NCBI RefSeq assembly: GCF_001715975.1
Contig: NZ_MARB01000005.1
Location: 62,001-126,000 of the forward strand
DNA: 64,000 nucleotides
Direction: 5' to 3'
Origin: Candidatus Thiodiazotropha endolucinida
Lineage (GTDB): Bacteria > Pseudomonadota > Gammaproteobacteria > Chromatiales > Chromatiaceae
Made by a program: the position numbers and the translations under genes. Positions 33,664-40,458 of this stretch are shown piece after piece (the stretch's first letter is position 1; every line of letters begins with the position of its first letter). Below the pieces are notes generated by a model that was not told the origin of the DNA, made no database searches, and worked only from the letters and a program-made list of their open reading frames with translations.

Positions 33664-34809
33664 TCAGGATGTTGCAGAGTCTGCTTTGTGTAGCACGGGG
33701 AATTTCTTCACCACGAACAGAAAGACCATGATCTCCAGGGCCACCATGCCGGCGGTGACCATGATCTCCGGGACAGAGGGGAAGTAGCTGTAGCCCGGAC
33801 CCGGATCGTAGGTGATGAGAAAAGCGTTGAAGCGGTAGAGCGAGCCGGCGAAGAGCATGGAGACCGAGGCCCAGAGCAGCAGTGGGCCGTGTCCCCGGTA
33901 TTTGGCCGAACTCAACACCACCAGCGGAAAGACGAACAGGGCCGTCTCCAGCAGGAACATCAGACTGCCCAGGTCACCGGCGAAGATAAGCCCCAGCTTG
34001 CCGTTCAATAGGATCTCGCCGAAGCGGAACCCAAGGTAGACTGAGATCAGACCGACAATCCCCTTGCCCAGACCCGCCAGCAGGGGTGTTTCAGAGGGGC
34101 GCCGGAAGCCGACGCTGCTGAAGGAGGCCTCGAAGACCACCACCGCAAAGCCCATGGTCAGGGCGGTAAGAATGGCCAGCAGGGGTTGCAGATGCAGCGA
34201 TTGCCAGAGGGGATGCACCTTGTAGCCCATGGCGATCAACATGGAGCCAAGGGAGGACTGGTGCATGGTCGGCAGCAGCACGCCGAGGGCGATGAAGATG
34301 AAGAGCACCTTGTTCAACGTCTTGATCAGCCCTTTGGCGCCGAACCTCTCCAGCAGGGTGGGGGCAAACTCGATGCAGAGCACCAGGATGTAGGTAGCGA
34401 CACAGAGGCCGACCTCCAGCATCACCGAATTGAAGTTCATGTGCCAGGGAGTGAAGATGTTGTAGAACTGCCAATAGCGGCCCATGTCGATCATGGCACC
34501 GATGCCGCCCAGGCCGTAGCCGAGCAGGCTGGCCAGCAGGGCGGGACGCATCAGCGGATGGTACTTGCCCTTGTTCATTATATAGACGGTGATGGCAAGG
34601 GCGTAACCGCCGCAGGCCAGGGCGGTGCCCACTACCACGTCATAGACTACCCAGACGCCCCAGGCATAGCCGCCGTTGAGATTGGTGACAAACCCCATGC
34701 CGTAAATGAAACGCTGGGCCAGGTAGTAGGAACCGATCAGGGCCACTATCCCGAGAATGATGAACGGCAGGGTGACGACCGGCCGGTTGAGGGGTTGGTA
34801 GGTGCTCAT
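33664..34809 (-). CDS. hybB: Hydrogenase membrane subunit HybB (NrfD/PsrC family)
   Basis: 381 residues with about ten hydrophobic helices, beginning NRPVVTLPFIILGIVALIGS and containing the conserved GGYAWGVWVVYDVVVGTALACGG (in parts YAWGVWVVYD and GTALACGGYA). HybB is the quinone-reactive membrane anchor that receives electrons from HybA. Its ATG overlaps the hybA stop (ATGA), so translation is coupled. Confidence 0.92.
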   Translation of the reverse strand: MSTYQPLNRPVVTLPFIILGIVALIGSYYLAQRFIYGMGFVTNLNGGYAWGVWVVYDVVVGTALACGGYALAITVYIMNKGKYHPLMRPALLASLLGYGLGGIGAMIDMGRYWQFYNIFTPWHMNFNSVMLEVGLCVATYILVLCIEFAPTLLERFGAKGLIKTLNKVLFIFIALGVLLPTMHQSSLGSMLIAMGYKVHPLWQSLHLQPLLAILTALTMGFAVVVFEASFSSVGFRRPSETPLLAGLGKGIVGLISVYLGFRFGEILLNGKLGLIFAGDLGSLMFLLETALFVFPLVVLSSAKYRGHGPLLLWASVSMLFAGSLYRFNAFLITYDPGPGYSYFPSVPEIMVTAGMVALEIMVFLFVVKKFPVLHKADSATS

Positions 34810-35777
34810 GAGTCGTCTCCTTCCTCGTCTTCGGTATTACGGCGCACCACATAGGTGAGCCCGGCCAGGGCGATGGCGGGCAGAGCCATATAGCTGTAGA
34901 GGGTGTGCTGTACCGTCTCCGAGATGGAGGCGTAGGAGCGTTCTTGCAGCGGCGGCATACCGAGTTTGTCGAAGGGGATGGAGGAGATGTGCAGGACGTT
35001 GGTGCCGCCCGCCTCCTTCTCGCCCCAGACATGCTGCCGGTACTCGGGCACCGCCTTTTCGTGATGGCTGTCGGGATTGCGCACATCACCGCGAGGGTAG
35101 TTGTAGATCTCGCCAGGTTTCAAAGTCATACGACGCTTGGCCTCTTCCAGCAAAGCCTTACGCGAACCGAACAGGGTGGCGCCGGTGGGGCAGGCCTCGG
35201 CGCAGCCGGTCATCTGGCCCTTGTCGATGCGCTCAACCCCGGCCTGATTGCACATCTGACACTTGTGGATCTCACCGAAGGGATTGTCGTAGTCGAACTG
35301 GGGCACATTATAAGGACAGCCCACCATGCAGGTACGGCATCCGATGCAGGCATCGGGATGGTGGGTGACGATGCCGGTCTTCGGATGGCGCCGCATGGCG
35401 GTCACCGGACAGACCGAGACACAACCCGGATCGACACAGTGCATACAGCTGCGTTTTTCGAAGGCGTAGCCGTTTTCCACCGCATCTTTCAGTTCACCCT
35501 CGCCGTCGCTGTAGACCTTGATCACATTGAGGGTTTGAGCAGACAGGTCATAGGCTGAGTCCCAGGCGGTCTCATCGCCCAGTGGGGTCGGGGGCATGCC
35601 GTTGACCTCCTTGCACTTGCTGACACAGGCCTTGCAGCCGATGCACAACGTCGAGTCGTAGAGCATGCCGATGGCCTCTTCCGCCGGCTCCAGGTTGCCT
35701 CGGGCCTCGGCGTTGCCGGCGCCCAAAAGGGCTGCGCCGCCGCCAAGGGAGGCCTTGAGAAAGTCTCTGCGTTTCAT
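34806..35777 (-). CDS. hybA: Hydrogenase ferredoxin-type subunit HybA
   Basis: 323 residues. A twin-arginine signal (MKRRDFLKASLGGGAALLGA) exports it. Four Cys-rich 4Fe-4S binding clusters are seen: CIGCKACVSKC, CMHCVDPGCVSVCP, CIGCRTCMVGCPYNVP and CQMCNQ...CAEACP. A C-terminal hydrophobic helix (SYMALPAIALAGLTYVV) anchors it to the membrane. It carries electrons from the small subunit to HybB. AAGGGGG precedes ATG 35777. Confidence 0.93.
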   Translation of the reverse strand: MKRRDFLKASLGGGAALLGAGNAEARGNLEPAEEAIGMLYDSTLCIGCKACVSKCKEVNGMPPTPLGDETAWDSAYDLSAQTLNVIKVYSDGEGELKDAVENGYAFEKRSCMHCVDPGCVSVCPVTAMRRHPKTGIVTHHPDACIGCRTCMVGCPYNVPQFDYDNPFGEIHKCQMCNQAGVERIDKGQMTGCAEACPTGATLFGSRKALLEEAKRRMTLKPGEIYNYPRGDVRNPDSHHEKAVPEYRQHVWGEKEAGGTNVLHISSIPFDKLGMPPLQERSYASISETVQHTLYSYMALPAIALAGLTYVVRRNTEDEEGDDS

Positions 35778-35786
35778 GGTGCCCCC

Positions 35787-36908
35787 TTACTCCCCGTCCT
35801 GCTCTTTACCATCCAGCTTCTTTGATGCCATGGCGGTGGCGCCGACCGCCAGGCCGACAGCAGCACCGGCGATGGCCGCCGCGCCGGTAGAGAAGCCGGC
35901 GTTGTCTTCGCGGTCCTCGATGTCGGGGAACATGTTGGGTGGGGTGTGGGTCTTCACGTCGGCCAGGCTGAACAGGGGCTTGTTGAAACCGACACCCCCT
36001 TCGGAACAGCCGAAACAGGGGTGGCCGACGCCGATGGGCCAGACACCGCCGCCCACATTATTGAATTCCAGGCTCGGGCAGTTGTTGTAGGTCTCGGGGC
36101 CTTTGCAGCCGAGTTTGTAGAGGCACCAGCCCTTACGGTGTCCCTCGTCACCGAACTCCTCGGCGAAGCGGCCGGCATCGAAGTGGGGCCGGCGATAGCA
36201 ATTTTCATGGATCAAGCGACCGTAGGCCCACTTCGGACGACCCTTCTCATCGATGGGTGGCAGCTTACCGTAGGTCACGAAGTAGAGTACCGTACCGATA
36301 AAGTTGGCCGGATTGGGTGGGCAACCAGGGATGGTCACCACTGTTTTGCCGGACAGAAATTGCGGCGCACCCACCGCGCCGGTTGGATTGGGCTCTGCCG
36401 ACTGCACGCCGCCCCAGCTGGCACAGGAGCCGAATGCGACGATGGCTGCGGCGTGCTCCGCCGCTTCCCGGGTGATGTCGACCATGGTCTCACCGCCGAT
36501 CTTGCAGAAGATGCCGTCGCTGGCGAGAGGGATGGCGCCTTCCACCACCAGCAGGTATTGCCCCTTGTTCTCCTGCATCACCTTTTTCTTGATCTCCTCC
36601 ACCTGATGTCCGGCACCGGTATCCAGGGTCTGGTGATAGTCGAGGGAGATCAAGTCGAGGATGAGGTGTTCCAGGGAGGGCTGTTCGGAACGCAACAGGG
36701 CCTCGCTGGGTCCCGTGCACTCTTGCCCATGCAGCCAGATGACAGGCGGGCGTTTTTTCGGATCGGCTACCGCCTGCGCCATGGCCATGGCGGCATTGGA
36801 TGATAGGCCGAGAGATGCCGCTACACCGGTACAGAACTTGAGAAAGGTCCTGCGTGATACGCCCAAGCGTTTCTCCACTGCTGAATAATCGAAATCGTGC
36901 GCTGCCAT
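35787..36908 (-). CDS. hybO: [NiFe]-hydrogenase small subunit HybO
   Basis: 373 residues. The Tat signal contains SRRTFLKFC (18-26). Iron-sulfur ligand Cys include WLHGQECTGPSEALL (proximal cluster), FGSCASWGG, and further Cys in IPGCPPNPANF, NCYRRPHFD, GCKGPETYNNCPS and HPCFGCSEGG. The C-terminal hydrophobic stretch (about 335-360) is a membrane anchor. It partners HybC and exports with it through Tat. It is the first gene of the operon, 71 bp downstream of a sigma-54-type promoter. Confidence 0.94.
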   Translation of the reverse strand: MAAHDFDYSAVEKRLGVSRRTFLKFCTGVAASLGLSSNAAMAMAQAVADPKKRPPVIWLHGQECTGPSEALLRSEQPSLEHLILDLISLDYHQTLDTGAGHQVEEIKKKVMQENKGQYLLVVEGAIPLASDGIFCKIGGETMVDITREAAEHAAAIVAFGSCASWGGVQSAEPNPTGAVGAPQFLSGKTVVTIPGCPPNPANFIGTVLYFVTYGKLPPIDEKGRPKWAYGRLIHENCYRRPHFDAGRFAEEFGDEGHRKGWCLYKLGCKGPETYNNCPSLEFNNVGGGVWPIGVGHPCFGCSEGGVGFNKPLFSLADVKTHTPPNMFPDIEDREDNAGFSTGAAAIAGAAVGLAVGATAMASKKLDGKEQDGE

Positions 36909-39594: not shown

Positions 39595-39759
39595 GGGTGT
39601 TCCCGGGTGTCTTATTGAAATCAGGATGGGGATGATACAGAAAGCTGAACCAACTGTCAGTGTGGAATGCCCGCCACCATTGACCTGAAGGGGCATCGTC
39701 AGTATTATTCCCCCCCTTTGTTCACCCAGGGTGTAGGGATATACTTTTGGGATGATTTT

Positions 39760-39836
39760 CGGGGTATAGCGCAGTCTGGTAGCGCGCCTGCTTTGGGAGC
39801 AGGATGTCGGGAGTTCGAATCTCTCTACCCCGACCA
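39760..39836 (+). tRNA. tRNA-Pro (anticodon UGG)
   Basis: 77 nt including an encoded CCA. The acceptor CGGGGTA pairs with TACCCCG. The anticodon loop is TTTGGGA, giving anticodon UGG. The T-arm is GGAGTTCGAATCTC. First gene of a four-tRNA cluster. Confidence 0.95.
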
Positions 39837-39843
39837 GTTTTCT

Positions 39844-40216
39844 GCGCCCGTAGCTCATTTGGATAGAGCATCGGCCTTTGAGCGCACATGGCCCAGGTTA
39901 TGTGCAATCAGGAGCCTTTATGAGGAATGCAACTCATAAAGTGGATCGCACTGTATCGGGGAAACCTTAACAGGTTGTGCTGATGGCAATCCCGAGGAAA
40001 CCTTTGGTTGAACCAGCCATATTACGCTGGGTAGGTAACCGGATCTGTCTGTGACTGCAGGTTAGGACAGATGCAGAGGGGATCCCTAGAGACTATACGT
40101 GCGACACCTGAGACGGTGAAGAGATAGTCCAGACCACAAACCCTGCGGGGGCGTCGAAAGACGTAGTTGGTAAGCTAAGCCGAGGGTAGCAGGTTCGAGT
40201 CCTGCCGGGCGTGCCA
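39844..40216 (+). tRNA. tRNA-Arg (UCU) split by a group I intron
   Basis: Exon 1 is 39844-39878 and exon 2 is 40175-40216, together 77 nt with encoded CCA. The acceptor GCGCCCG pairs with CGGGCGT. Joined exons give the anticodon stem TCGGC/GCCGA around loop CTTCTAA, so the anticodon is UCU. The mature sequence closely resembles E. coli tRNA-Arg(UCU). The intron falls between U34 and C35 of the anticodon. Without splicing this tRNA cannot function. Confidence 0.9.
39879..40174 (+). ncRNA. Group I self-splicing intron in tRNA-Arg(UCU)
   Basis: 296 nt with the group I core. P7 is seen as GACTAT and ATAGTC around the P8 hairpin CACC-TGAGAC-GGTG. The P4-P6 region is CGGGGAAACC ... GGCAATCCCGAGG, with P5 AACC/GGTT. 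A GAAA-capped hairpin (CGTC-GAAA-GACG) near the 3' end is P9-like. A 9-bp stem CTTTATGAG/CTCATAAAG lies in the 5' part (P2-like). The last intron base is G and exon 1 ends in U, both group I rules. The core words match the IC3 class found in cyanobacterial tRNA-Leu. There is no open frame for a homing endonuclease. Confidence 0.9.
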
Positions 40217-40264: not shown

Positions 40265-40341
40265 GGTGGACGTAGCTCAGTTGGTAGAGCTCCGGATTGT
40301 GGTTCCGGCGGTCGTGGGTTCGAGACCCATCGTCCACCCCA
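40265..40341 (+). tRNA. tRNA-His (anticodon GUG)
   Basis: 77 nt including the extra 5' G(-1) and encoded CCA. The acceptor GTGGACG pairs with CGTCCAC. The anticodon region CCGGATTGTGGTTCCGG reads GUG. The T-arm contains GGGTTCGAGACCC. Confidence 0.95.
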
Positions 40342-40382: not shown

Positions 40383-40458
40383 GGGCCATTAGCTCAGCTG
40401 GTAGAGCAGTGGACTCTTAATCCATTGGTCGTAGGTTCGAATCCTACATGGCCCACCA
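40383..40458 (+). tRNA. tRNA-Lys (anticodon CUU)
   Basis: 76 nt with encoded CCA. The acceptor GGGCCAT pairs with ATGGCCC. The anticodon loop is CTCTTAA, anticodon CUU. Its last 40 nt recur, split by an insert, at 58212-58322, so this gene is a probable integration site. Confidence 0.95.

What the first reader, a model, noticed from the sequence alone, without database searches (positions are those of the whole stretch)
39844..40216. tRNA-Arg(UCU) interrupted in its anticodon by a 296-nt group I intron
The exons join to a perfect 77-nt tRNA with the intron after U34. Group I signs are all present: exon 1 ends in U, the intron ends in G, P7 and P8 pair around the G-binding region, P4-P6 words match the tRNA-Leu type introns, and a GAAA-capped P9-like hairpin lies near the end. 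Bacterial tRNA group I introns I know of are in tRNA-Leu(UAA), tRNA-Arg(CCU), tRNA-Ile(CAU) and tRNA-fMet; a UCU isoacceptor in a gammaproteobacterium is unusual. The host would depend on splicing for AGA decoding, unless another tRNA-Arg(UCU) exists.
Basis: partly seen in the sequence, partly recalled or inferred. Interest (0 to 1): 0.82.

Follow-up and report, generated by a model that had tools for sequence, protein, structure and literature searches.

The report
Self-splicing intron interrupting an arginine tRNA

Summary
Window 39844-40216 is a tRNA-Arg(UCU) gene (exons 39844-39878, 40175-40216) interrupted after U34 by a 296-nt group I intron. Rfam's group I model matches at 36.1 bits, E=1.8e-7, below its gathering score of 50. 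In 57 relatives 99.2% of core pair cells pair and 11 of 27 pairs change on both sides. In a closed congener no other UCU tRNA was found. It is not unprecedented: interrupted tRNA-Arg-TCT was reported as putative in Beggiatoa and Thiomargarita. Added here: one family in Gammaproteobacteria and Bacilli; relatives with a PD-(D/E)XK homing endonuclease in P6, absent from the window's copy; one relative after U36 with a matching guide change; and related endonucleases (about 60% identical) free-standing in viral contigs beside intact tRNA-Arg(UCU). Splicing was not tested. The window's copy alone (1 of 57) has C at 40086, in the core. Verdict: a real group I intron of known kind with an interesting family history.

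The parts
39844..39878 (+). exon 1 of tRNA-Arg(UCU), ends at U34
39879..40174 (+). group I intron, 296 nt
40175..40216 (+). exon 2 of tRNA-Arg(UCU), CTAAGCC... to CCA
39876..39878 (+). [quoted passage not shown]
   Evidence: pairing read from sequence
39912..39914 (+). GAG, internal guide sequence (intron strand of P1); 39910-39911 AG can pair with exon 2 CU (P10)
39916..39941 (+). P2 hairpin (CTTTATGAG / CTCATAAAG)
   Evidence: read from sequence; aligned
39946..39951 (+). P3 5' strand (TCGCAC), pairs with 40099-40104
39956..39995 (+). P4 (39956-39960 with 39991-39995) and P5 (39965-39966 with 39985-39986)
39996..40085 (+). P6 (39996-39997 with 40084-40085) with a non-coding extension where some relatives hold the endonuclease gene
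40086..40086 (+). J6/7 first base: C here, G in 56 of 57 aligned introns
40091..40096 (+). P7 5' strand (guanosine-binding helix), pairs with 40124-40129
40099..40104 (+). P3 3' strand (GTGCGA)
40105..40118 (+). P8 hairpin (CACC / GGTG)
40124..40129 (+). P7 3' strand (ATAGTC)
40133..40171 (+). P9 (ACCA / TGGT) with inner GAAA-capped hairpin 40152-40163
   Evidence: read from sequence
40174..40174 (+). terminal (omega) G of the intron
39760..39836 (+). tRNA-Pro(TGG), upstream neighbour in a conserved cluster
40266..40341 (+). tRNA-His(GTG), downstream neighbour
40383..40458 (+). tRNA-Lys(CTT), downstream neighbour

Best explanation
The gene is transcribed as a precursor tRNA. The 296-nt intron folds into a group I ribozyme, pairs its guide GAG with exon bases C32-U33-U34, binds guanosine in P7, cuts after U34 and joins the exons at the terminal G, giving the only UCU tRNA found, the one that reads AGA. 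It is a mostly vertically inherited, no longer mobile member of a family in which some members carry a PD-(D/E)XK homing endonuclease in P6; the window's genus has lost that gene. Shown here: architecture, covariation, spread, absence of the gene in the genus copies read. Inferred: self-splicing, homing, and loss rather than never having had the gene.
For: Rfam E=1.8e-7. 99.2% of 1539 cells pair, 11 of 27 pairs change on both sides. Guide GAG or GGG with at least 2 P10 pairs in 91 of 98 distinct sequences; the other 7 failed the P10 part but contain GGAGCC. Present in 20 of 22 genus genomes, no locus seen in the other 2. No other UCU tRNA in closed genome G004: 43 of 43 tRNA hits typed. AGA in 26 of 30 ORFs of at least 250 aa, picked by length, 75 of 12,654 codons. 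Intron and flank distances agree in the genus (Mantel r 0.50, 0 of 2000 permutations). Intact P6 ORF in 22 loci, 17 distinct proteins; 16 of 16 scanned match Pfam PDDEXK_5; third codon positions differ most in 4 of 4 pairs compared.
Against: No RNA data and no splicing test. The Rfam score is below gathering. The window's copy alone has C at 40086 (1 of 57). For the window's own P6, likeness to endonuclease-bearing P6 is not significant (14 of 200 shuffles as high); of 13 genus copies tested 5 had 0 of 200 (L004, L005, L010, L011, L012) and 4 had 46 or more, and in the alignment printed for L004 the matched part lies mainly upstream of the ORF. So loss of the gene is inferred. The Mantel r is only moderate. 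The tree rests on 127 columns.
Confidence: 0.93

Rival explanations
1. The intron of this particular strain is impaired: C at 40086 in J6/7 lowers splicing, and AGA is read poorly or by another route.
For: C in 1 of 57 and G in 56 of 57 aligned introns, Bacilli included; its closest relatives in G004 and G020 have G (rows L002, L003).
Against: AGA is used at 5.9 per thousand codons in the window's long ORFs; no other UCU tRNA among 44 of 44 typed tRNA hits of the draft; the draft may hold a base error.
Confidence: 0.1
2. The interrupted gene is a dead copy and another tRNA-Arg(UCU) serves the cell.
For: The own draft misses tRNA-Arg(ACG), so its tRNA list is incomplete.
Against: Closed congener G004 has 43 of 43 tRNA hits typed and no other UCU; both exons match uninterrupted orthologues; the core is conserved across the genus.
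Confidence: 0.03
3. The insert is removed by proteins (tRNA endonuclease and ligase) and the group I likeness is accidental.
For: Archaeal and eukaryotic tRNA introns are removed so (PMC4033280, passages).
Against: Full P3-P9 core with covariation; U before and G at the end; no such bacterial pathway is known to me (recalled).
Confidence: 0.01
4. The intron is kept because its guanosine-dependent splicing regulates AGA decoding, not because precise loss is hard.
For: Kept in 20 of 22 genus genomes, with no endonuclease gene in the genus copies read.
Against: Nothing tested; that precise deletion is rare would suffice.
Confidence: 0.08

Closest known systems
Putative group I introns in tRNA-Arg-TCT of Beggiatoa BOGUAY and Ca. 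Thiomargarita nelsonii Bud S10 (PMC4853749, passages; MacGregor 2013a not seen)
   Same: Same tRNA, gammaproteobacterial sulfur bacteria, the UCU gene missed by annotation.
   Different: That paper says it did not determine structure or type for these introns, and the passages give no site. Its interval for the gene is 324 nt, as long as the gene of G089 (L023), where I place the intron after U36, not U34; that G089 is such an organism is a guess.
Cyanobacterial and plastid tRNA-Leu(UAA) group I introns (class IC3 and position after U34, as recalled)
   Same: Insertion after U34; exon ends CUU; guide GAG (recalled for Anabaena); short intron without ORF.
   Different: Other tRNA. tRNA-Leu(UAA) introns from genomes of the same class as the window fall outside the tRNA-Arg(UCU) group; no cyanobacterial one was fetched.
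tRNA-Arg(CCU) and tRNA-Ile(CAU) group I introns
   Same: Core found by the same model, in an anticodon loop.
   Different: Other tRNAs; the CCU ones sit after U36 (by eye); outside the UCU group.
I-Ssp6803I, homing endonuclease of the Synechocystis tRNA-fMet intron (that PDB 2ost is this enzyme is recalled; the entry says 'Putative endonuclease')
   Same: Relatives' P6 ORFs match 2ost (profile E=6.5e-5) and Pfam PDDEXK_5.
   Different: Distant; other intron and target; the window's intron has no ORF.
Free-standing phage homing endonucleases in tRNA clusters, e.g. T4 SegB between tRNA-Arg and tRNA-Ile (PMC2988022, passage)
   Same: An endonuclease gene beside a phage tRNA-Arg gene.
   Different: SegB is of the GIY-YIG type; those found here are PD-(D/E)XK and related to an intron-borne enzyme.

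Membership tests
Group I introns | U before the intron, paired with G of the guide (P1) | tested here: met
   CUU with GAG; GAG or GGG with at least 2 P10 pairs in 91 of 98 distinct sequences, GGAGCC in the other 7
Group I introns | intron ends in G | tested here: met
   40174 is G
Group I introns | P3-P8 core with P7 | tested here: met
   99.2% of 1539 cells paired, 11 of 27 pairs change on both sides; P7 97.7% paired
Group I introns | Rfam RF00028 gathering score | tested here: not met
   36.1 bits against 50; E=1.8e-7. A curated cut-off, not a biological feature
Group I introns | P10 pairing with exon 2 | tested here: inconclusive
   2 contiguous pairs in the window; 2-4 in 91 of 98 sequences, fewer in 7
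Group I introns | self-splicing | not testable with these tools
   needs in vitro splicing
Subgroup IC3 | match to an IC3 model over other subgroups | not tested
   no subgroup models at hand; placed by likeness, recalled
tRNA-Leu(UAA) introns | core groups with tRNA-Leu(UAA) introns | tested here: not met
   starred branch between 116 rows labelled Arg-UCU (plus 2) and 14 others, 7 of them Leu; cyanobacterial ones not included
Mobile introns with a PD-(D/E)XK endonuclease | intact endonuclease ORF in the intron | tested here: not met
   none in the window (P6 insert of 74 nt); met in relatives
Mobile introns with a PD-(D/E)XK endonuclease | cleavage of the intronless tRNA-Arg(UCU) allele | not testable with these tools
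   needs purified enzyme

The most novel reading that the evidence does not exclude
The window shows the end state of a homing system for one tRNA anticodon that phages carry about: a PD-(D/E)XK endonuclease lives free-standing beside intact tRNA-Arg(UCU) in phages, is also found inside a group I intron of the same tRNA, and the pair has spread between Gammaproteobacteria and Bacilli (a natural case of collaborative homing), leaving many bacteria dependent on ribozyme splicing for AGA.
Probability: 0.35. Interest if true: 0.7.

Novelty: new member of a known kind. Interest (0 to 1): 0.5.

Why it matters
A probably essential tRNA that ARAGORN in its normal mode misses is there and should work only after ribozyme splicing; genomes that seem to lack tRNA-Arg(UCU) deserve a second look. 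Relatives hold several stages in one gene: endonuclease intact, broken, mostly deleted, absent. There is also a shift of insertion site with a matching guide change, and phage relatives of the endonuclease beside the same tRNA. [quoted passage not shown]

Tried and rejected
Tandem introns: two model hits in one tRNA gene first looked like two introns with a 2-nt exon between them (my note). Reading eight such genes showed one intron whose core is split by a P6 insert with an intact or broken ORF; rejected.

Endonuclease trace in the window's own P6: not significant. In the 3' part alone 33 or more of 200 shuffles were as high in 13 of 13 genus copies.

Group I intron in a viral tRNA (L286): the model R1 matches in two halves (59.2 and 42.8 bits), but Rfam at E up to 0.01 finds no group I match there, and ARAGORN calls the gene Ser(gct); I read tRNA-Arg(UCU) by eye. 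No terminase match on the record. Of 10 large proteins scanned, one matches an integrase and one a portal protein (E=1.5e-8), one a family of unknown function and 7 nothing; of 8 ORFs around and in the intron, 4 matched families of unknown function and 4 nothing. Of 34 viral loci only L286 has a model match.

Plasmids: no relative of the endonuclease.

Promoters: 6 promoter-like sites against 0.9 expected near the cluster, one upstream of tRNA-Pro at 39680-39708; no terminator-like site behind the cluster. Taken as no evidence.

Structure prediction of the endonuclease: six tries, machine busy each time; not run.

Pattern hits that are not supported: L225 (Akkermansia) is a chance match; L199 gave no model hit. 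115 of 117 pattern loci have a model hit, 103 of 117 an ARAGORN tRNA-Arg(tct). L115 has an intact ORF but its 3' splice site and part of exon 2 are missing.

Literature: no listing or passage seen describes the family, its endonuclease or an intron in Ca. Thiodiazotropha (open-licence papers only, and 8 papers looked into by passages, one of them with a whole section).

Full report
What is there. Window 39844-40216 holds a tRNA-Arg(UCU) gene split after U34 by a 296-nt insert. The joined exons equal an uninterrupted relative at 77 of 77 positions. ARAGORN without introns and Rfam at gathering thresholds both miss it. In a focused search Rfam's group I model scores 36.1 bits, E=1.8e-7, below its gathering score of 50. 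The gene lies in a tRNA cluster Pro(TGG)-Arg(UCU)-His-Lys near folD-like and cysS-like genes (names by eye); the order Pro-Arg-His recurs in most relatives read.

Is it a group I intron? The paired parts P1 to P9 can be named base by base (coordinates in the parts list). On a first alignment of 8 sequences all 216 pair cells form standard pairs and 8 of 27 pairs change on both sides, 7 of them through one distant row, L023. On 57 relatives, chosen by me as one or a few per group and without the long endonuclease inserts, 99.2% of 1539 cells pair and 11 of 27 pairs change on both sides, against 0 of 500 shuffles; slid controls pair at 31-42%. That alignment was fitted to P3-P6 and P8 but not to P7, which pairs at 97.7%. 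P1 is CUU with GAG. My rule (guide GAG or GGG plus at least two P10 pairs) is met by 91 of 98 distinct sequences; the 7 others lack the P10 pairs but contain GGAGCC. I call it IC3-like from recall only; no subgroup model was run.

Does the host depend on it? In closed genome G004, same genus, 43 of 43 tRNA hits were typed: Arg ACG, CCG and CCT are there, an intact UCU is not. The own draft also shows none among 44 of 44 typed hits, but it lacks Arg(ACG) too, so its list is incomplete. AGA stands in 26 of 30 ORFs of at least 250 aa, picked by length (75 of 12,654 codons). Dependence is therefore very likely; splicing itself is inferred.

Spread. In one search, 20 of 22 genomes of the genus (own included) have the intron; G009 and G012 show no match at all, exons included. 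Within 20 genus copies, intron and upstream distances correlate (r 0.50, 0 of 2000 permutations), as expected of descent, though not tightly. Model R1 found matches in 50 of 369 genomes of the class and 16 of 146 of the family. Of the 30 class loci fetched (one per genome), 15 are called tRNA-Arg(tct) with an intron by ARAGORN, L106 and L108 read so by eye, L115 holds a truncated gene, and the rest are other tRNAs or unclear; 20 matching genomes were not looked into. By lineage of the title 79 are Gammaproteobacteria, 23 Bacilli, 11 have no class, and 4 are others: an alphaproteobacterium, a myxococcus, an archaeon and Akkermansia. The last is a chance match; the other three may be misbinned metagenome contigs.

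Family history. On a quick tree of 132 cores (127 columns, weak resolution, several long branches) 116 rows labelled tRNA-Arg(UCU) after U34 are parted by a starred branch from 14 rows of tRNA-Leu(UAA), tRNA-Arg(CCU) and tRNA-Ile introns. Rows not shown to be otherwise were given the tRNA-Arg label, and a few of them have no ARAGORN call. One very long row, a tRNA-Thr intron, falls among them, probably by error. The 16 Bacilli rows form one group inside the proteobacterial ones (support 93, not starred), which suggests one transfer between phyla; direction is not proved. In G089 (L023) the intron sits after U36: its guide is GGA, which pairs with UCU, and UU before it can pair with exon AA (sequence, read by eye). 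L023 groups with L104 (starred, but the L023 branch is flagged as long), which sits after U34. So the site seems to have moved by two bases and the guide with it. The L023 gene is 324 nt long, the length that PMC4853749 gives for the interrupted tRNA-Arg-TCT of Thiomargarita Bud S10 (passages); whether it is that organism is a guess.

The endonuclease. Some relatives have a P6 insert of about 430-440 nt with an ORF; it is intact in 22 loci, 17 distinct proteins. All 16 scanned match Pfam PDDEXK_5, and a profile finds PDB 2ost at E=6.5e-5. Other relatives hold broken or mostly deleted copies. The genus copies measured have only 4-75 nt there. Likeness to the endonuclease-bearing P6 is beyond 200 of 200 shuffles in 5 of 13 genus copies, but not in the window's own (14 of 200 as high), and 4 of 13 had 46 or more. 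This fits the known cycle of gain, decay and loss of homing genes, but the order of events was not reconstructed.

Phages. The endonuclease has relatives in 16 phage records, in no plasmid record and in 34 IMG/VR loci. Of the 21 closest IMG/VR loci (L269-L289), 18 have an intact tRNA-Arg(UCU) called by ARAGORN 38-76 nt upstream. L269 has a tRNA that ARAGORN calls otherwise, though its loop reads CTTCTAA; L287 has tRNA-Arg(CCU); L286 holds an intron. Several contigs are near copies. Synechococcus phage Sf-FR1 has the same layout at 59% identity, and Acinetobacter phage Herod at 41%. Only L286 of the 34 has a model match: core halves around an intact ORF inside a gene that I read as tRNA-Arg(UCU), while ARAGORN says Ser(gct) and Rfam gives no group I match at E up to 0.01. 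Its contig has a portal-like protein and an integrase but no terminase match. A 2014 review says introns in phages were till then all in protein genes (PMC3984707, section 11), so this would be unusual if the contig is phage. On the protein tree free-standing and intron-borne forms cluster, but the root is unknown and some branches are long. Two reviews describe collaborative homing, in which a free-standing endonuclease targets an intron's insertion site (PMC3984707 and PMC2988022, passages); the layout fits it. Endonucleases in phage tRNA clusters are known: T4 SegB sits between tRNA-Arg and tRNA-Ile. Cleavage is untested.

A caution about this copy. At 40086, first base of J6/7, the window has C; the other 56 of 57 introns have G. 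It may be a base error, harmless, or harmful.

Against what is known. The kind is known, and even tRNA-Arg-TCT in gammaproteobacteria was reported as putative. A 2014 review lists bacterial tRNA group I introns in cyanobacteria, alpha- and betaproteobacteria (PMC4033280, passages), and tRNAscan-SE 2.0 says it was not designed to find such introns (PMC8450103, passages). I saw no paper on the spread, the endonuclease, the U36 shift or the phage link (searches in Tried and rejected), but only open-licence papers were searched and few were read beyond listings. I file it as a new member of a known kind, interest 0.5.

Noticed in passing
window 40086: C at a core joining base where 56 of 57 introns of the family have G.
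   Followed up: partly
L269-L289, L303, L304: Free-standing PDDEXK_5-like endonuclease genes downstream of intact tRNA-Arg(UCU) in phages and viral contigs: 18 of 21 closest IMG/VR loci and both phages.
   Followed up: partly
L286 2809-3536: Gene read as tRNA-Arg(UCU) with group I core halves and endonuclease on an 83.7-kb IMG/VR contig; possibly a phage tRNA intron (against).
   Followed up: partly
L023 1313-1636 (G089): Same tRNA, intron after U36 with a guide that matches UCU; gene length 324 nt as reported for Thiomargarita Bud S10.
   Followed up: partly
L114, L117, L113, L129, L139, L116, L120: Group I introns in other tRNAs, read by eye: Thr(UGU) after U36, Ile(CAU) perhaps after U33, Arg(CCU), Leu(UAA).
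   Followed up: partly
L115 (G416): Intact endonuclease ORF in an intron whose 3' splice site and part of exon 2 are missing: a broken tRNA-Arg gene; the genome has a third model match on another contig.
   Followed up: no
G000 C34 17286-17358 and 17792-17865 (L053): Two odd tRNA-like genes, called 'Stop(tta)' and a 77-nt 'Leu(tag)' by ARAGORN.
   Followed up: no
G000: tRNA-Arg(ACG) not found in the own draft but present in closed genome G004.
   Followed up: no
L253, L246: The intron in metagenome bins titled Halobacteria and Rhodobacter; perhaps misbinned. L246 has two model matches on opposite strands.
   Followed up: no
G303 C1 4941-5080 and C2 3054110-3054249: Two copies of the intron core with equal score in one genome.
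   Followed up: no
window 33664-36908: Genes that look like a NiFe-hydrogenase small subunit and its electron-transfer partners (by eye).
   Followed up: no
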